From assembly GCA_944324845.1 (NCBI GenBank), contig CALUXX010000001.1, positions 372,001 through 436,000 on the forward strand: a DNA stretch of 64,000 nt, read 5' to 3'. Numbering within the stretch: the stretch's first letter is position 1; each line of letters opens with the position of its first letter. The position numbers were made by a program, and so were the translations under genes. Positions 21,313 to 48,500 of this stretch are shown here, piece by piece. The DNA comes from Candidatus Gastranaerophilales bacterium. Its GTDB lineage: Bacteria > Cyanobacteriota > Vampirovibrionia > Gastranaerophilales > Gastranaerophilaceae. The notes below the pieces were generated by a model. That model did not search any database. It worked only from the letters and a program-made list of their open reading frames with translations, and was not told the DNA's origin.

Positions 21313-21528
21313 ATGAATATAATACAATTATTTGCAAATAATGTTAAAAAATATAGAAATTTAAAAGGTATTTCACAGGAATATCTTGCAGAGCTTTCGG
21401 GTTTACATCGCACCTACATTAGTTCTATAGAATGTTATAGAAGAAGTGTGTCATTAAACAATATTCAAAAAATAGCAAAAGCTTTAGATGTTGATGTTTA
21501 TAAATTATTTTTAGTTGAGGAAGAATGA
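21313..21528 (+). CDS. XRE-family regulator, R-M controller (C-protein-like)
   Basis: A 71-aa single-domain helix-turn-helix protein: GISQEYLAELSGLHRTYISSIE is the HTH and NIQKIAKALDVDVYKLF the closing helices. This size and sequence type is typical of C proteins that time expression of type II restriction genes. I place the start at 21313 because AAGGA lies at a good distance; upstream in-frame starts lack a Shine-Dalgarno. The stop overlaps the endonuclease start by 4 nt (coupled translation). No perfect C-box repeat was found upstream, so autoregulation is inference. Confidence 0.82.
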   Translation: MNIIQLFANNVKKYRNLKGISQEYLAELSGLHRTYISSIECYRRSVSLNNIQKIAKALDVDVYKLFLVEEE

Positions 21529-22106
21529 ATCATTTTGTATTTGCCAATAAACAATTATTATTCAAAAATATTATTGTTCAGAAAAATGAAGTCGGTATTA
21601 TTCTAACCAGCGATGAAGTATCTGCAATAGTGTCTTTTGTATATAGTAATTGTACTGTTAAAGTTCGTCTTGAGGATATTACGCGTTTTGATCCATTAAA
21701 AACTGGAGACCAATTTTCTAAAAAAGTTTGTAATGTTTGTCATCGTTTGCTTGATGTTAATTTATTTCAGAAAAATCAGAATGGGAAAAATAATAGAACA
21801 GTGAGGCGCCCATCATGTAATCATTGTAGGGATATTATTGACGGAAAAAACATGACGTCTGCAGAAAAAACAATGATGAATAAAATAAAACCCCATATGG
21901 AAATTTGGACTTGTCCTATTTGTAAAAAAACAACTATTCCTGGATTAACAAGCAAGGTTGTGTGTGATCATGATCATGTAACAGGGCACCCTAGGGCTTG
22001 GATATGTGATAGCTGTAATACAGGCTTAGGAAGATTTAAAGATGACCCCGTATTACTTAACAGTGCGATAAAATATTTAAATAATAATGGTGTAAAAACT
22101 AATTAA
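21525..22106 (+). CDS. HNH (beta-beta-alpha-Me) type II restriction endonuclease, Hpy99I-like
   Basis: 193 aa. An N-terminal beta-rich part is followed by two zinc-ribbon-like pairs (CNVC at 69-72 with C98/C101; CPIC at 130-133 with C161/C164) and the Endonuclease VII-type core VVCDHDHVTGHPRAW...CDSCNTGLGRF. D148, H149 and N165 fall exactly where I remember the catalytic triad of Hpy99I (CGWCG cutter), and the length is the same; this homology is from memory and needs an alignment. It is translationally coupled to the controller and overlaps the methyltransferase convergently by 8 bp. If it is Hpy99I-like the recognition site may be related. Confidence 0.8.
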   Translation: MNHFVFANKQLLFKNIIVQKNEVGIILTSDEVSAIVSFVYSNCTVKVRLEDITRFDPLKTGDQFSKKVCNVCHRLLDVNLFQKNQNGKNNRTVRRPSCNHCRDIIDGKNMTSAEKTMMNKIKPHMEIWTCPICKKTTIPGLTSKVVCDHDHVTGHPRAWICDSCNTGLGRFKDDPVLLNSAIKYLNNNGVKTN

Positions 22107-22932
22107 ATATAGGTAATTGAATTCCTTTATTTTTATATGTGTCAATTCTCGTTTTTGCAATATTAACATATTCTTCAGAAATATCACATCCAAGATAGTG
22201 TCTTTTGTTAATTAAAGCCATTTTGCAAGTAGTGCCACTTCCACACATTGGATCAAAAATCAAATCACCTTCATTGCTCCAACTCAGAATATGGTCCTGT
22301 GCGAGTCTTTCTGGGAAAACTGCTGGATGATTAAATGCTATTTTATCATTAGTTGTACCTCCTAAACCAACAGCATATTCCCATATGTTTGTTTTGGTTT
22401 TTTCTTCATTTAATCTACCTAATATTTTTTTATTAATACCATCTGATTTCTTATTATGTACCAGCATTTCCATACCAGAACGCACAGTTTTTTCTTTTAA
22501 TGGATTAAACGTCTTTGGAGAACCTTTTGAAAAAATAAACATGAATTCAAAACAATTAGTATAGGCATTTGATCTCATAAAAGGTGTATTTTTCTTTTTG
22601 TATATCATTGTGTCATGGACATTAAATCCTACTTCTTGAAAAGCGAGTGCATGTCTAAAACTTGTTAAAGTTTTATTTCCTTTTTTTATTTTATCGCCAA
22701 CTACCCATACAACTACACCACCAGGTTTAATTATTCTATACAATTGTTTTGCAATTTGGCTATAATTGAACAAATATCCATTATAGTCACGTAAATCATC
22801 ATATGGTGGCGATGTGACAACCAAATCAATATAATCAGCTTCCATATTTTGCATAAAATTAAGGCAATTATCACAATATATATTATCTATCTTAATCTCT
22901 TCCTGTTTAATATCAGTCTTTATATTTGACAT
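22099..22932 (-). CDS. Beta-class DNA methyltransferase (N4-C or N6-A), R-M partner
   Basis: Protects host DNA against the adjacent nuclease. The catalytic motif TSPPYDDLRDYNG lies near the N-terminus and the SAM-binding FDPMCGSGTTCKMA near the C-terminus, the order of beta-class amino-methyltransferases; SPPY is commoner in N4-cytosine enzymes. I choose the start at 22932 because GGAG lies 9 nt upstream; the ATG at 22953 would add seven residues. It is convergent with the nuclease gene, so protection and cutting are expressed from separate promoters. Confidence 0.9.
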   Translation of the reverse strand: MSNIKTDIKQEEIKIDNIYCDNCLNFMQNMEADYIDLVVTSPPYDDLRDYNGYLFNYSQIAKQLYRIIKPGGVVVWVVGDKIKKGNKTLTSFRHALAFQEVGFNVHDTMIYKKKNTPFMRSNAYTNCFEFMFIFSKGSPKTFNPLKEKTVRSGMEMLVHNKKSDGINKKILGRLNEEKTKTNIWEYAVGLGGTTNDKIAFNHPAVFPERLAQDHILSWSNEGDLIFDPMCGSGTTCKMALINKRHYLGCDISEEYVNIAKTRIDTYKNKGIQLPIFN

Positions 22933-23145
22933 ATCCCTACACTCCAATTCCATTATAATATAAAAAGGTATATTATCAAATTATATCGAATTAATTTTGC
23001 CTATTTTTTGCTTTTTCAATGACTATTTCAACTTTAAATTACATTTTTAAGATTTTTGAGTAAAAAATAATTAATTTTGCTAAAATTTTGAAATTTAATA
23101 AAAATTGAGTTAAAAGGTTTTCGATGGCTACATTTTAATCTATTT

Positions 23146-23423: not shown

Positions 23424-26054
23424 CTATACAGCTTTGTCAAGTTTTCTATCACTTGATTTATGTGAATTTCTATATAGAATATATGCACCTGATAGAACAA
23501 TCACACCACCAATTACGCTGTAGATTAACTTCATTGGTTTTGTTTTTGCTGTTGTTTGAAGAATTTCTTCTGCACATTCTCTGAATTCGCCAAACTTGCC
23601 TGTTACTCGTCTTAGAGTTCCCATATATCTGTCTGTAATTGGTTTGTCATATTCAAAGATATCTTGCATATAGCGCATATTTGCACTTTTGCCTAAGTTA
23701 TATTCGTTATTGTTATGCCAGTCCACAAGTTCTTCTATGTTTTTCTTAGACATTGCTACATAGTCTTCATGGTCGTTTGTATATTGATTGATGAATTTTT
23801 TGAATATGTTTGCTACTTGCGGTTTTTGTCTGTTTATTCTGGCCTGATCAATTTCTTTTTCAGAGTTTGCATAACTCAAACCATAACGTTCTGGACGACC
23901 TTCAACAACTTCATCTGTTAAAAATCCGTTTTTAGAATTTGTATAATCTACAGGTCCGCCTGTTGCCGTTGTTCCATAAGGTGTTCCTGCTATTTTTGCC
24001 TCAAGTGGTGTAACTCCGCACATTTCTCGGCGTGATGTGAATAAGCAGTAATGTACGCAGCCTACAAATCTATTTGGGGTGAAACCTTCTATATTCATGT
24101 AGTTATGTCTATATATTCCGCCATCTAGATTCCATATTTCTTCGGCATCTTTTCGCATTGCTTTATAGTCATCTGCGTTTTTATCCCAAGGACCGGCTCC
24201 AGTAATTAATTTTACGTGTTTTTTCACTTCAGTTGGAATACTTTTATCTTTTAAAAATTCCAAAAATCCGCCTGTTGTCATGGTGAAACCTTTTTGCTCA
24301 TCAGGTCTTCCATAGCCAAATACCAAAATATCACCATCTTGAACTTTTGATATATAACCCCAAACATTGTGACCTTCTGCAATTTGAGTTTCATTGAAGA
24401 ATAGTTTATTTAAAGCATCTTGACCTTTTTTTCCTGCTTCTTCAATAGCTCCAGACAGCCATCTTGCATTCTTCTCTTTTGCTGCAATTACTTCATTTAT
24501 GTCTGTTGTTATATTTTGATTTACTTTTTTAAGTTCAGGTTTTTCTTCTAATTTTTTCTTGAAGGCTTCTAATTCTTCAGGTTTTACATATGTGAATGGT
24601 GTATATCCTTTTTTTACTTCAGGAGTTGATAAACCGTTATTGCCTCTTCCGAAGTTTGCATCAGGATTACCCAGACTTAGGTTTGCAGGAGTGGCTCCAT
24701 TTAATACTGATTTTGTAGTTATTGACGCATAATCATCTGTCAAGAATTTTGCTGCATCTGGAGTTTCAGGACTTTTCATTTCTCTATCAAACTGATATGA
24801 TACTGTTCCTGTGGAAATGTTTTCTGGATTTACTCCTGCTGCTGATATGCCGGTTTTTAATATATTATATGTGCCAGCTCCATCTCTAAAGTTTCTTAAA
24901 TATGGTGATAATACTGCCCAAGCAATTTGTTGTTCTCTTGCAGATAGTGCTTGTGAGTTATTTATTCCAAATTTTTTCGCTTTTGTTAATATGTCAAAGT
25001 CTGGGAGTGATTTTATTTTTTCAGCATCTGCTGCATCTCCCACTACTGATATCATTTTGAATGGGTCATCTGTTAAACCTTGATAATTACGTCCTGTGTT
25101 GTGCGCAACAATATGTACTTTTAGACCGTTTGCATCTGTATCTCCTGATGCTGACATATTTGCAATGTGGTTTCCGTATGTGTGAGCAACTCTATCGTGC
25201 GCGATTACGTTTGCTGGATTAAAATATCCAAATTCTTCTGTATTCATCCTTTTATGAATTATTTGTGTTAAGGCTCTCATTTCATCAGAATTTATAATTT
25301 CTGCTTCAAATGGAGCATTTCCAAAAGCATCATAAGTATATGGTTTTGAAGCCTTTGCCAAATCCGGGGTATATACAAAATAGTTTGGAGTATCTTTTAA
25401 TTTGTTATAATCAGGGTTTTTGCTTGAAATCTTTAACAGTGCATAATGTATTGTGTCAACTTCGCCAAGTTCTTTTGTTGATGGACGACTTATGCTCCCT
25501 GTTATTTTTGGGGCATCTAACAAACAATATTTTGATTGCGCATCAGGTCCTGTTCCTATTGGCTTACTTTGAATTACATATCTTACTTCTGATGTTTTTA
25601 AATTGAATTTCTTTGCTACATCTTCTAATGTTTCTCCAACATCTGCACTGTAAAAATACTTTGCAGGAAGAGTATCTGGCATTTTTTCCATGTCTGCCGG
25701 ATAATCTTTTTCCGGTAATATTACAAATTTATAGCCGCCTTTTGGATTGTTATGTTCCCAAAATGGCATGAAACTTCTTGCATCTACTCCTTCATGCTCT
25801 ATTAAGCTTGCTGGAAGTTCATAACCAACTACGCCTTCTCCGCCCATAAAGGCTTCAGGTAATCCTAAACCTTTATTTTCAGGAGTTAATGATGCTACTT
25901 GTTTTAAATTTTTTACTCCACCCTCAAAAGTTATTAATGTTAGTTTTGGGGCTGATGCAGAACGACTAATGTTATTTGTTAAATCTCTACTGATTGTACG
26001 GTTTTGTACCGTATTACGTTGGGTGTGATATCCCCTTACTGAATCAACACGCAT
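23424..26054 (-). CDS. GT5 glycogen-synthase-like protein with LysM-like insert and C-terminal membrane anchor
   Basis: 876 aa, recognisable as a GT-B enzyme: GGEGVVGYELPASL (about 71-84) aligns with the N-terminal GGL-type loop of glycogen synthase, IAHDRVAHTYGNH and IVAHNTGRNYQG match the HDWH and HN..YQG segments, VFGYGRPDEQKGF the R..QKG strand, and SRREMCGVTPLEAKIAGTP the ExxCGxTxxE acceptor loop. Differences: the ADP-glucose lysine position is Phe (F69), a LysM-like segment (SADVGETLEDVAKKF, about 136-150) is inserted, extra unknown stretches lie in the middle, and a C-terminal TM helix (about 841-861) with a basic tail anchors it. AGGTGG precedes the ATG. Role unknown; it could be a membrane-bound glycosyltransferase or a structural derivative. 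Confidence 0.78.
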   Translation of the reverse strand: MRVDSVRGYHTQRNTVQNRTISRDLTNNISRSASAPKLTLITFEGGVKNLKQVASLTPENKGLGLPEAFMGGEGVVGYELPASLIEHEGVDARSFMPFWEHNNPKGGYKFVILPEKDYPADMEKMPDTLPAKYFYSADVGETLEDVAKKFNLKTSEVRYVIQSKPIGTGPDAQSKYCLLDAPKITGSISRPSTKELGEVDTIHYALLKISSKNPDYNKLKDTPNYFVYTPDLAKASKPYTYDAFGNAPFEAEIINSDEMRALTQIIHKRMNTEEFGYFNPANVIAHDRVAHTYGNHIANMSASGDTDANGLKVHIVAHNTGRNYQGLTDDPFKMISVVGDAADAEKIKSLPDFDILTKAKKFGINNSQALSAREQQIAWAVLSPYLRNFRDGAGTYNILKTGISAAGVNPENISTGTVSYQFDREMKSPETPDAAKFLTDDYASITTKSVLNGATPANLSLGNPDANFGRGNNGLSTPEVKKGYTPFTYVKPEELEAFKKKLEEKPELKKVNQNITTDINEVIAAKEKNARWLSGAIEEAGKKGQDALNKLFFNETQIAEGHNVWGYISKVQDGDILVFGYGRPDEQKGFTMTTGGFLEFLKDKSIPTEVKKHVKLITGAGPWDKNADDYKAMRKDAEEIWNLDGGIYRHNYMNIEGFTPNRFVGCVHYCLFTSRREMCGVTPLEAKIAGTPYGTTATGGPVDYTNSKNGFLTDEVVEGRPERYGLSYANSEKEIDQARINRQKPQVANIFKKFINQYTNDHEDYVAMSKKNIEELVDWHNNNEYNLGKSANMRYMQDIFEYDKPITDRYMGTLRRVTGKFGEFRECAEEILQTTAKTKPMKLIYSVIGGVIVLSGAYILYRNSHKSSDRKLDKAV

Positions 26055-26199: not shown

Positions 26200-28713
26200 T
26201 TATATTGATGTTGATGCTTCTTCTACAACTTCAGCATCTTTATCTTTTTTGGCTTTTTTCTTTGCTTTATCAAATGTAATTTTGCCATCTACTAAGGTTA
26301 CTTGAATTACATCTCCTGGACCGTATTTTCCTGATAAAATTTCTTCAGCCAAACTATCTTCCATTTTTCTTTGGATTAAGCGACGTAAAGGTCTTGCTCC
26401 ATATGCTTCTGAGTATCCGTTTTCTGCCAAGTGATCTTTTACTTCATCACTTACTTCAACGCTTAAATCTTTTTCTGCTAATCGTTTGAATAAATCTTTA
26501 AGCATTAAATCTACAATTTGACGGATTTCTTCTTTTGAAAGATGTGCAAATACTATTGTTTCATCTATTCTGTTTAGAAATTCAGGTCTAAATGCCTTTT
26601 TCATTTCTTCTGAAACTGTTTCTTTTAATTTTTCATATTTGCTCTTAGATTCATCTTCTGCTGTTGTGAAGCCTAATTTTGAAGTATTTGTAATCATGCT
26701 TGCACCAACGTTAGATGTCATGATTATTACGGTGTTTTTGAAACTTACATGACGTCCTTTTGAATCTGTTAATCTACCATCATCTAAGATTTGAAGCATT
26801 ATATTGAATACATCCGGATGTGCTTTTTCAATTTCATCGAAAAGTACAACTGAATACGGTTTCTTTCTTACTAGTTCAGAAAGATGTCCGCCATCATCAT
26901 AACCTACATATCCTGGAGGTGAGCCGATTAATTTTGCTGTTGAGTGTTTTTCCATAAATTCTGACATGTCAACTCTCAACATATTGTCTTCTGAACCAAA
27001 CATTGCTTCTGCTAATGCCTTTGCCAGTTCTGTTTTACCTACACCGGTCGGACCACAGAAGATGAAACTTCCTATTGGTCTGTTTGGTGCTTTTAAGCCT
27101 ACTCTTGCTCTCCTAATTGCTTTTGAGATCGCAACGATTGCATCGTGTTGACCTATTACTCTTTGGTGTAGCGTATCTTCTAATTTTAAAAGTCTTTCAC
27201 TTTCACCTTCTGTCAATTTCGTAACAGGTACTCCTGTCATCATTGCTATTACTTCTGCTACATTTTCTGCTGTTACTGTAGCTTTATTTGATTCGTTTTC
27301 GTTGCGCCATTTTTCAGAAATTTCTCTGATTTTATCTTTCAAATCAGCTTCATCATCTCGTAATTGTGATGCTACATCAAATTCTTTATTTCTTATGGCA
27401 TCTTCTTTTTCTTTTATCAATGATTTTAATTGTTTTTCAAGTTCTTTTCCTTCCGGTGATATGTTAGATACTTTTAATCTAACTTTTGAACTCGCTTCAT
27501 CTATAACATCAATTGCTTTGTCAGGTAAAAATCTATCATTTATGTATTTGCTTGATAGTTTTACTGCTGCTACTATTGCTTCATCTGATATTATAAGTTT
27601 GTGGTGTTCTTCATATTTTGGTTTCAAACCTTTTATAATCTCTATTGATTCCTCTATTGTCGGTTCATCAATTTGCACAGGTTGGAAACGTCTTTCTAAT
27701 GCAGAATCTTTTTCGATATATTTTCTGTATTCATCAGATGTTGTTGCTCCGATTACTTGAATTTCACCACGTGATAGTGCAGGTTTTAAGATGTTTGCTG
27801 CATCTATTGCTCCTTCTGCTGCACCTGCTCCAATCAAGGTGTGCATTTCATCTATTACAAGAATTATATTGCCTGCTTGACGAATTTCATCCATGATTTT
27901 CTTTAAACGTTCTTCAAATTCACCACGATATTTTGTACCGGCTACAAGTAAACCCATGTCTAATTGGATAACTTTTTTACCATCTAATATATCTGGAACT
28001 TCTGCATTTACAATTCTTGTTGCTAAACCTTCTGCTACCGCTGTTTTACCAACACCAGGTTCGCCTAACAATACAGGGTTATTTTTGGTTCTTCTTGCTA
28101 GAATTTGTATTACACGTTCAATTTCTTTTTCTCTGCCTACTACAGGATCAAGTCTTAATTCTTGTGCTGCTAAAGTTAAATCTCTGCCAAATTCATCTAA
28201 GCTTGGTGTTTTTGTTTTTCCGCCTGTTGATGAACTTGAACTTGATGATGAACTAGCTGAACCTGTTGTGGTTGTTTTTGATTCTCCAAGCATTTTTATT
28301 ACGTTGCTTCTAACTTTGTTTAAGTCAACGCCTAATTCTTCCAGAACACGTGCGGCTACGCCTTCGCCTTCTCTGATTAAGCCTAACAATAAGTGTTCTG
28401 TACCTATATAATTGTGACCTAATTGCCTTGCTTCATCCCAAGATAATTCTAATACTCGTTTCGCTCTTGGAGTAAATGGGATTTCTACCGCAACAAAGCC
28501 TGAACCTCTTCCGATTATTTTTTCGACTTCAGTTCTTGCATCCTTTAAGTTTACACCCATTGATTTAAGTGTCTTTGCGGCAACCCCGGTTCCTTCTCCG
28601 ATTAGACCAAGCAATACTTGCTCAGTTCCTACAAAGTTATGTCCTAATCTGCGAGCTTCCTCCTGAGCGAGCATTATTACTTTTATTGCCTTTTCTGTAA
28701 AACGTTCGAACAT
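26200..28713 (-). CDS. clpC: ATP-dependent Clp protease ATPase subunit ClpC
   Basis: Hsp100 unfoldase feeding ClpP. Two Clp_N repeats (residues 1-75 and 76-145) precede a Ser/Thr-rich linker (eight consecutive serines near 155-165). AAA-1 has GEPGVGKT, then a UVR-containing middle domain ([20 protein letters not shown]). AAA-2 has GPTGVGKT, and the ClpP-binding loop region and C-terminal D2-small domain follow. Its 837 aa matches cyanobacterial and Firmicute ClpC rather than ClpA/ClpB. AGGAG precedes the ATG. Monocistronic, with its own terminator. Confidence 0.96.
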
Positions 28714-47009: not shown

Positions 47010-47384
47010 TTAGTCTTTTGAAGAATTTTGCTTAACTTCTTCTATTTTGTCATACATATTTTCAAATTTTGGTGCCAATTTTTTGAATGCTAACATATCA
47101 ACTGCAGTATAAATAGCACCGATTAATAGTCCTAATGCTATGTTTAGTTTTGTTTTACTTTTAGCAATTTGTTTTAATGTTTCTGCAGGTTTATCAAGTT
47201 TTTTCAAAAGTTTGAATTTATTTCGGCTTTCTAAAACTCCAAATGCAACAGCACTACCTGCGATAAAATCATTCATAGCTGCAATTTGTGTGAAATTTCT
47301 TTTATTATACAAACTGGATTGCTTGTTTTCTTTGTTTTGTTCCGGATTTTGAATTGATGTAAAACTGATTTTTTGAACTTGCAT
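47010..47384 (-). CDS. Unknown small clade-type protein with two hydrophobic segments
   Basis: 124 aa, AGGAGA Shine-Dalgarno. The N-terminal VQKISFTSIQ is of the 'ISF' type seen in Gastranaerophilales proteins. Two hydrophobic helices (FIAGSAVAFGVLE; IALGLLIGAIYTAVDMLAF) suggest a membrane hairpin, separated by Lys-rich helix. No family recognised. It lies convergent to the phosphohexomutase gene and 85 bp from the kinase-like gene start-to-end, possibly same transcript. Confidence 0.65.
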   Translation of the reverse strand: MQVQKISFTSIQNPEQNKENKQSSLYNKRNFTQIAAMNDFIAGSAVAFGVLESRNKFKLLKKLDKPAETLKQIAKSKTKLNIALGLLIGAIYTAVDMLAFKKLAPKFENMYDKIEEVKQNSSKD

Positions 47385-47469: not shown

Positions 47470-48462
47470 TTAAGAAAGTGAATCCAAATAGTTCTTTGTA
47501 AGTTTTAATCGTTGAGAAGCTTGATTAACTTCTTTTTGATACTTTAGTAATGTTGATAATACCTCTTGATAAGAAGTCTTGATTCCACACAAATCATTGA
47601 TTATAGTTTTCCAAATTATTTTATCTGTTGGATATGTACCCAAATCAAGATTATATTTCATACTTGCAAGAACTATTTTATTAAAAATTTCTCTCCTTGG
47701 TTGTATTGCATCTTTTTCAAATTGAGCAAATTGATTTATATGTGTTTTTTCTAATAAGATACTTAGCATTTCGGCAGTTGAGTTAGCATTTTTTATTGTT
47801 GTTTTTCCAATCAAATCCGTTATTCTTATTCTTTTTCCAACTAAGACAAAGTTGTTTGGATTTTTGAAGTCAAAGGTGTAATTCTCATATCCTTTCCCCG
47901 TTTTGTTCAATTTGTCAAAATCACTTGCTATTGCATCGTATGCTCGTTGCGGTAATTTTGCCAAACGGGCTAAATAAGTATTTAGATAGTAATCTTTTAT
48001 ATCTTCATTCCTTAGTCCTGCAGAAATCATTTTGTCAGGAATACCTGCTTGCATGTGTGAGCCGTTTTGGGAGACATTTTTCAATATCTTGCCATAAGTA
48101 AAGTTTGCAATAACCTCACCATAATATGTTTTTAAGCCTTGAAATTTTTGTTTTGGAAGATCTTCAAAATAAAAATAATCGCTACCTGAATTAGGAACTT
48201 TTATAACATATTCATCATCAATCTTATACACAGTACCATGTGTTCCGGAACCTAAAACTCGAACTTTTGCTTCAGGTCTGTTCCAAAATTTGTTTAACAA
48301 TTTCGATAGATTTCGTATATCATCTGTTTTAACAGTATTATTCTTAATTACATTATCAAGTTCTTTTGAAAATTTAGACTTATACCCGGAAAAGCCAGGC
48401 GTATTTTTATTGTTTTGATAGAGTTGATAAGAATTATAATATGATATGTTAGTCAGTTTCAT
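47470..48462 (-). CDS. Protein-kinase-like protein with clade-type N-terminus
   Basis: 330 aa. After a FSGYKSKF-type N-terminus, residues 67-88 form a glycine-rich loop and lysine (VRVLGSGTHGTVYK ... YVIK, K88). E116 could be the helix-C glutamate. TFDFKNPNN (D198, N203) takes the place of the HRDxxxxN catalytic loop, and RITDLIG (D216) that of DFG. The 5- and 13-residue spacings equal those of PKA (D166/N171/D184). So all main catalytic positions are present, although the HRD histidine-arginine is replaced. Function likely Ser/Thr or small-molecule kinase. Start at 48462 chosen from homologue-like KLTNISYYN; an upstream ATG at 48480 and TTG at 48483 are in frame. Confidence 0.7.
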   Translation of the reverse strand: MKLTNISYYNSYQLYQNNKNTPGFSGYKSKFSKELDNVIKNNTVKTDDIRNLSKLLNKFWNRPEAKVRVLGSGTHGTVYKIDDEYVIKVPNSGSDYFYFEDLPKQKFQGLKTYYGEVIANFTYGKILKNVSQNGSHMQAGIPDKMISAGLRNEDIKDYYLNTYLARLAKLPQRAYDAIASDFDKLNKTGKGYENYTFDFKNPNNFVLVGKRIRITDLIGKTTIKNANSTAEMLSILLEKTHINQFAQFEKDAIQPRREIFNKIVLASMKYNLDLGTYPTDKIIWKTIINDLCGIKTSYQEVLSTLLKYQKEVNQASQRLKLTKNYLDSLS

Positions 48463-48500
48463 ACGAATTTGAAAACACATCAATAAAAATTTTTGCCAAT

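What the first reader, a model, noticed from the sequence alone, without database searches (positions are those of the whole stretch)
23424..26054. Glycogen-synthase-like protein with LysM-like insert and C-terminal membrane anchor
GT5 landmarks (HDxxxH, HN..YQG, ExxCGxTxxE) occur in an 876-aa protein that has a LysM-like segment inserted after the first strands, a Phe in place of the ADP-glucose-binding lysine and a membrane helix at the C-terminus. A membrane-bound GT5 with a glycan-binding-like insert is unexpected; it may synthesise or bind an envelope glycan.
Basis: partly seen in the sequence, partly recalled or inferred. Interest (0 to 1): 0.65.

Follow-up and report, generated by a model that had tools for sequence, protein, structure and literature searches.

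The report
Membrane-tethered starch-synthase-like enzyme of Gastranaerophilales
This gut bacterium (a non-photosynthetic cousin of cyanobacteria) keeps, besides its ordinary glycogen synthase, a second and very divergent synthase-like enzyme with a membrane anchor at its tail, and each well-assembled relative in its genus has either this one or a differently anchored cousin, which suggests a conserved job in making a sugar polymer at the membrane.

Summary
The ORF is real: an 876-aa minus-strand gene in a Gastranaerophilales genome, under strong purifying selection. AlphaFold2 (mean pLDDT 84) gives a GT-B fold closest to GT5 starch/glycogen synthases (6gnf, Z 25.4, 489 residues, 3.2 Å). The catalytic Arg, Lys and Glu and the HN and NG motifs are kept. 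The ADP-glucose Lys (K-X-G-G-L) is lost; the position is variable in the clade. A single C-terminal membrane helix is present in 26 of 26 aligned homologues. The "LysM insert" is a real, conserved insertion, but only ~25 residues resemble LysM; Pfam does not call it, although the same model finds six true LysM domains in this genome.

Beyond the finding: the genome also has canonical GlgA and GlgC. The gene lies directly behind clpC in all 33 distinct homologues where this could be seen. Among 34 good genomes of the genus, 26 carry this C-anchored type and 8 an N-anchored relative from a separate lineage; none has both, none lacks both. In three genomes the second type sits inverted in the same slot. 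Best reading: a membrane-tethered, probably active glucan-type synthase, distinct from GlgA. Donor, product and function are untested.

The parts
23424..26054 (-). CDS of the 876-aa GT5-like protein (P0001)
   Evidence: conserved frame in 35 of 46 genus genomes; dN/dS about 0.1
25920..26054 (-). Residues 1-45: disordered leader MRVDSV...LITFEGG, conserved at its two ends (M[RQK][VI]..[VI] and [ILV][ST]FxG) with a variable spacer
   Evidence: alignment; pLDDT under 50; shared across the family
23625..25919 (-). Residues 46-810: GT-B catalytic core, GT5-like
   Evidence: AlphaFold2; Foldseek/VIA (6gnf Z 25.4)
25827..25850 (-). Residues 69-76 FMGGEGVV, at the place of the GT5 K-X-G-G-L motif; Lys absent
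   Evidence: motif definition PMC2576272
25506..25718 (-). Residues about 113-183: lineage-specific insert in the N-domain; residues 134-160 resemble the first half of LysM
   Evidence: no Pfam LysM
25191..25199 (-). Residues 286-288 HDR, at the HD/ND position of GT5
   Evidence: invariant in 26 homologues
24288..24311 (-). Residues 582-589 GRPDEQKG: Arg583 and Lys588 at the catalytic R/K positions (R300/K305 in E. coli GlgA numbering, from own knowledge)
   Evidence: invariant in 26
24000..24026 (-). Residues 677-685 EMCGVTPLE: catalytic Glu (E377 position) plus a second Glu, E-x7-E, absent from the lineage's GlgA
23463..23537 (-). Residues 840-864: single C-terminal transmembrane helix
   Evidence: hydropathy 1.95 over 19 residues; 26 of 26 homologues
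23427..23462 (-). Residues 865-876: short tail ending LDKAV; all 26 aligned homologues end in two residues from A/V
26200..28713 (-). clpC, directly upstream on the same strand, gap 145 nt
   Evidence: conserved neighbour, gap 22-158 nt (mostly 106-158)

Best explanation
P0001 is a membrane-tethered, probably catalytically active GT-B glucosyltransferase descended from the GT5 starch/glycogen-synthase stock but separate from the cell's housekeeping GlgA. Shown or predicted: the GT5-like GT-B fold, retained catalytic Arg/Lys/Glu, one C-terminal membrane helix without an obvious signal peptide, and a fixed gene position behind clpC. Inferred: the catalytic body faces the cytoplasm and is held at the inner membrane by its tail, where it transfers a sugar (most likely glucose, from a nucleotide sugar whose identity is open because the ADP-glucose lysine is gone) onto an alpha-glucan or other acceptor at the membrane. 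Its job would be local synthesis or initiation of a glucan at the membrane, comparable in principle to plant starch synthase 4 working with the membrane-anchored MFP1. The N-anchored type that replaces it in other genomes of the genus would do the same job. Confidence by step: GT-B/GT5-like fold 0.95; membrane anchoring 0.9; active transferase 0.7; glucan product 0.45; membrane-localised initiation role 0.25.
For: Fold: AlphaFold2 mean pLDDT 84; best solved matches are GT5 starch/glycogen synthases, Z 22-25 over 418-491 residues. Homology: profile match to L048/L050 (E 1.6e-19, 612 columns, running into the C-terminal helix), and L048 passes the PF08323 cut-off and matches TIGR02095 at 1.6e-31. 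Active-site residues invariant in 26 homologues and nearly throughout the wider family. Anchor: 26 of 26, with similar C-terminal helices across many genera. Universality: 26 C-anchored plus 8 N-anchored, none both, none neither, in 34 of 34 genomes at least 90% complete and at most 5% contaminated. Same slot between clpC and the SIMPL gene in L041-L043 as in ten C-anchored loci. The genome separately encodes GlgA, GlgC, GH57, GH13 and an alpha-glucan phosphorylase, so alpha-glucan metabolism is present. Two anchored lineages lie apart from GlgA on a tree.
Against: The lysine that contacts ADP-glucose in GT5 is absent, and the K-X-G-G-L motif described as strictly conserved in starch and glycogen synthases (PMC2576272) is not met. 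Some family members elsewhere lose the catalytic Glu (L048, L050, L149, L154, L163), so part of the wider family may be non-catalytic. P0001 itself passes no curated family cut-off. Donor, acceptor, topology and localisation are untested. No neighbouring gene in the window belongs to glycogen metabolism. The exclusive pattern may reflect a few swaps inherited within clades rather than many independent ones. The split between the N-anchored and C-anchored sides of the tree is supported at only SH-aLRT 80-86 at its base.
Confidence: 0.5

Rival explanations
1. Envelope-glycan glycosyltransferase: the enzyme has left storage glucan and builds a capsule or other surface glycan at the cytoplasmic face of the inner membrane, using UDP-glucose or another donor.
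For: Membrane tether; loss of the ADP-glucose Lys; E-x7-E, as in GT3/GT4-type enzymes (own knowledge); its best Pfam and PDB sequence matches are GT1/GT4-type and GT3 (Glycogen_syn) models rather than PF08323.
Against: No envelope glycan genes in the conserved neighbourhood. The overall fold ranks GT5 first. Relatives with intact KxGG keep the same tether.
Confidence: 0.25
2. Non-catalytic scaffold: a degenerate synthase that binds alpha-glucan and docks glycogen or phosphorylase/GlgA at the membrane.
For: Lys lost and variable; catalytic Glu replaced by Ala in some relatives; a conserved extra beta-rich insert in the N-domain.
Against: R583, K588, E677, H318/N319 and N452/G453 are invariant in the clade, with strong purifying selection on the core (dN/dS about 0.08), which is hard to explain without catalysis or at least donor binding.
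Confidence: 0.2
3. LysM-bearing envelope enzyme: the insert is a true LysM domain that binds peptidoglycan or a chitin-like glycan.
For: VGETLEDVAKKFNLKTSEV lines up with the first half of LysM; profile comparison with the genome's own LysM domains gives 69% over 26 columns, and the weak hits fall at the same place in several homologues.
Against: No Pfam LysM in 26 members, while the same model finds six LysM domains in this genome. The isolated insert is predicted with one short helix and beta strands, not beta-alpha-alpha-beta. Without a signal peptide the insert should lie in the cytoplasm, away from peptidoglycan.
Confidence: 0.05

Closest known systems
Bacterial glycogen synthase GlgA / granule-bound starch synthase (GT5; 6gnf, 2qzs)
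   Same: GT-B fold, order of motifs, catalytic Arg/Lys/Glu, HN...YQG and NG motifs
   Different: About 390 residues longer than the genome's own GlgA, no KxGG lysine, E-x7-E instead of E-x7-I/Y, extra N-domain insert, C-terminal membrane helix; does not pass PF08323 or TIGR02095
Plant starch synthase 4 (SS4) working with thylakoid-anchored MFP1
   Same: A GT5 enzyme separate from the bulk synthases and spatially tied to a membrane; MFP1 location decides where starch granules start (PMC10801857)
   Different: In plants the tether is a separate protein; here it is part of the enzyme. Any initiation role here is only an analogy
Fungal alpha-1,3-glucan synthases (Ags; from own knowledge)
   Same: Membrane-bound proteins with a GT5-type synthase domain making a wall glucan
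   Different: Very large multi-spanning eukaryotic proteins with amylase-like domains; not compared here
N-anchored GT5-like proteins of the same genus (alignment A2; L039-L044)
   Same: GT5-like core, one membrane helix, ISFxG leader; in L041-L043 the same genomic slot
   Different: Anchor at the N-terminus, no C-terminal helix, S/N-x-G-G-M-S in place of KxGG, separate lineage on the tree

Membership tests
GT5 (starch/glycogen synthase) | GT-B fold closest to GT5 | tested here: met
   Z 25.4, 489 residues, 3.2 Å to 6gnf
GT5 (starch/glycogen synthase) | Passes the curated family model (PF08323 / TIGR02095) | tested here: not met
   No hit in P0001; relatives L048 and L041 do pass PF08323
GT5 (starch/glycogen synthase) | K-X-G-G-L motif with the ADP-glucose lysine (PMC2576272) | tested here: not met
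   F-M-G-G-E in P0001; variable in its clade
GT5 (starch/glycogen synthase) | Catalytic Arg, Lys (RxxxQKG) and Glu (ExCG) | tested here: met
   R583, K588, E677 invariant in 26 homologues
GT5 (starch/glycogen synthase) | Alpha-1,4-glucan synthesis from ADP-glucose | not testable with these tools
   Needs an enzyme assay
LysM (PF01476) | Match to the LysM profile | tested here: not met
   0 of 26 members; positive control: six LysM domains in the same genome
LysM (PF01476) | Beta-alpha-alpha-beta fold | tested here: inconclusive
   Predicted insert shows one short helix and strands; fold searches of the insert gave no clear match to anything
Tail-anchored membrane protein | One hydrophobic helix near the C-terminus and no N-terminal signal | tested here: met
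   Hydropathy, 26 of 26; insertion and topology not tested

The most novel reading that the evidence does not exclude
Gastranaerophilales evolved a self-tethered starch-synthase-like enzyme that starts an alpha-glucan (or a new glucan) at the membrane, and two lineages with anchors at opposite ends have replaced each other in the same chromosomal slot because only the tethering, not its geometry, matters.
Probability: 0.22. Interest if true: 0.75.

Novelty: new variant of a known kind. Interest (0 to 1): 0.5.

Why it matters
Glycogen and starch synthases are treated as soluble or granule-bound enzymes. A lineage-wide family of synthase-like proteins that carry their own membrane anchor, kept beside ordinary GlgA in non-photosynthetic relatives of cyanobacteria, would point to membrane-localised glucan synthesis in bacteria. 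The one-or-the-other pattern of two anchor designs makes a direct test of function by exchange possible.

Tried and rejected
LysM insert: rejected as a true LysM on profile evidence with a positive control; a residual half-LysM similarity remains. Fold search of the isolated insert gave nothing (best Foldseek E 0.55; VIA Z 2.4 over 74 residues, 5.3 Å; no LysM listed), so its fold is left open. Direct profile comparison of the family with the lineage's GlgA and with the N-anchored type is not significant on its own; homology was reached through L048/L050. Chance ORF or pseudogene: rejected by conservation. Frameshifted or fused glgA: rejected, the genome has an intact GlgA elsewhere. Co-transcription with clpC: not decided; promoter-like sites are at chance level and no terminator was seen in the gap. 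GH13 branching-enzyme model TIGR01515 not found in the genome; GH57 and GH13 members are present. Paper searches on membrane-bound GT5 enzymes and on glycosyltransferases in this lineage found nothing on this protein. Tail topology by charge: ambiguous, both flanks are positive. In the wide alignment rows X_L110, X_L116, X_L118 and Y_L056_1 are wrong ORFs picked by length and were left out of the tree. The 'H161reg' column was anchored on the wrong NDW and is replaced.

Full report
What is there. The window's minus strand carries an 876-codon gene at 23424-26054. The genome is a Gastranaerophilales assembly: its named near relatives are 'Candidatus Gastranaerophilales', 'Candidatus Melainabacteria' and uncultured gut MAGs. 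The gene is conserved, with full-length homologues at 48-89% identity in most genomes of the genus. dN/dS is about 0.1 between close homologues, 0.08 in the core, higher in the N-terminal leader.

Fold and family. P0001 alone matches only sub-threshold GT1-type Pfam models and no NCBIfam model. A 26-sequence alignment gave a confident AlphaFold2 model (mean pLDDT 84, pTM 0.81; residues 1-45 and 829-876 disordered or uncertain). Its best solved matches are GT5 enzymes: granule-bound starch synthases, starch synthase IV, E. coli and Agrobacterium glycogen synthases (Z 22-25), with glycogen phosphorylases just below. By sequence, its profile matches L048/L050 from another family of the order at E 1.6e-19 over 612 columns, running into the C-terminal helix. 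L048 passes PF08323 and hits TIGR02095 at 1.6e-31. So it is GT5-derived by a chain of homology, though it fails the curated GT5 models and the K-X-G-G-L motif that is described as strictly conserved (PMC2576272).

Active site. Arg583 and Lys588 (GRPDEQKG), Glu677, His318/Asn319, Asn452/Gly453 and His286-Asp287-Arg288 are invariant in 26 homologues. In a wide alignment (about 90 long relatives) the R, K and E positions are kept almost throughout, except for a subgroup with Ala at the Glu. The lysine position reads F in P0001 and F/Y/A/S/G/M/K among close relatives, while deeper relatives keep K, so the Lys was lost within this lineage and the Phe has no special status. All correctly picked C-anchored and genus N-anchored relatives have a second Glu eight residues on (E-x7-E), which none of nine GlgA proteins of the order has.

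The insert. Residues about 113-183 have no counterpart in GlgA and form a conserved, confidently predicted segment. Only VGETLEDVAKKFNLKTSEV resembles LysM. PF01476 does not hit any member but finds six LysM domains in the same genome. A profile comparison with those six gives 69% probability over 26 columns covering the first half only. The isolated model has a single short helix and no useful PDB match. It may be a decayed half-LysM or a chance resemblance; it should not be called LysM.

The anchor. One hydrophobic helix near the C-terminus is the only membrane-like segment in all 26 proteins. Similar C-terminal helices recur in long GT5-like proteins across genera of the family, while another set has the helix near the N-terminus. 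A tree separates C-anchored, N-anchored and GlgA proteins (base of the N-anchored group SH-aLRT 80, of the C-anchored side 86).

Genome context. The gene is directly downstream of clpC on the same strand in all 33 distinct homologues (45% identity or more) of the clade where the upstream gene could be read, usually with a gap of 106-158 nt. A related clade at 42-46% identity sits instead beside a transporter-like gene. The genome also has canonical GlgA (TIGR02095, 498 bits), GlgC, GH57 and GH13 enzymes and an alpha-glucan phosphorylase, so P0001 is an addition to, not a substitute for, the normal pathway.

One or the other. Among 46 genomes of the genus, 35 have the P0001 type and 8 the N-anchored type; no genome has both. 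The three with neither are 82-86% complete. In the 34 genomes at least 90% complete and at most 5% contaminated the count is 26 + 8, with none left over. In L041, L042 and L043 the N-anchored gene lies inverted between clpC and a SIMPL-domain gene (PF04402), the slot that the P0001 type fills in ten loci. This looks like replacement by a distant relative in place and implies a shared function, but the number of independent exchanges was not worked out.

Mechanism. I favour a membrane-tethered, active glucosyltransferase making or initiating a glucan at the inner membrane. The fold, the catalytic residues and the helix are predicted or read from sequence. The cytoplasmic orientation, donor, acceptor and purpose are inference. 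The nearest known analogy for a spatially fixed GT5 is SS4 with thylakoid-anchored MFP1 in plants (PMC10801857). A published genome survey of the lineage reports starch/glycogen use and a diderm envelope with LPS genes (PMC4040986), but I found no description of this protein.

Verdict.

Noticed in passing
window 47010-47384, 47470-48483; L057:4655-6103; L041:852-1639; L044:9966-10478; L059:7573-8595: Many unrelated proteins of this lineage start with M[KRQNE][IV] and carry a short [ILV][STN]FxG or QFG motif within the first ~70 residues, as P0001 does. 13 of 52 family clusters with that start have the motif against 17 of 288 others (Fisher p 1e-4; no such link in a control segment). Possibly an uncharacterised leader or sorting signal.
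   Followed up: partly
window 23427-23462 and homologues: All 26 aligned homologues end in two residues drawn from Ala and Val (LDKAA, NKVA, LDKAV) after the membrane helix and a variable linker; resembles a C-terminal protease or sorting tag.
   Followed up: partly
L048, L050, L149, L154, L163: A subgroup of the C-anchored relatives has Ala in place of the catalytic Glu (SRFAPCEL or SRWAPCEL), while most of the five keep the GT5 lysine; possible non-catalytic members.
   Followed up: no
L048:1-6213 and L050:2-6547: The GT5-like gene of these genomes directly follows a very long (over 2000 aa) repetitive gene that ends like an outer-membrane barrel.
   Followed up: no
window 21525-22953: Endonuclease VII-like/His-Me finger gene next to an N6/N4 DNA methylase, just downstream of P0001 and not seen at that place in the other loci examined; looks like a small mobile or restriction-modification cargo.
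   Followed up: partly
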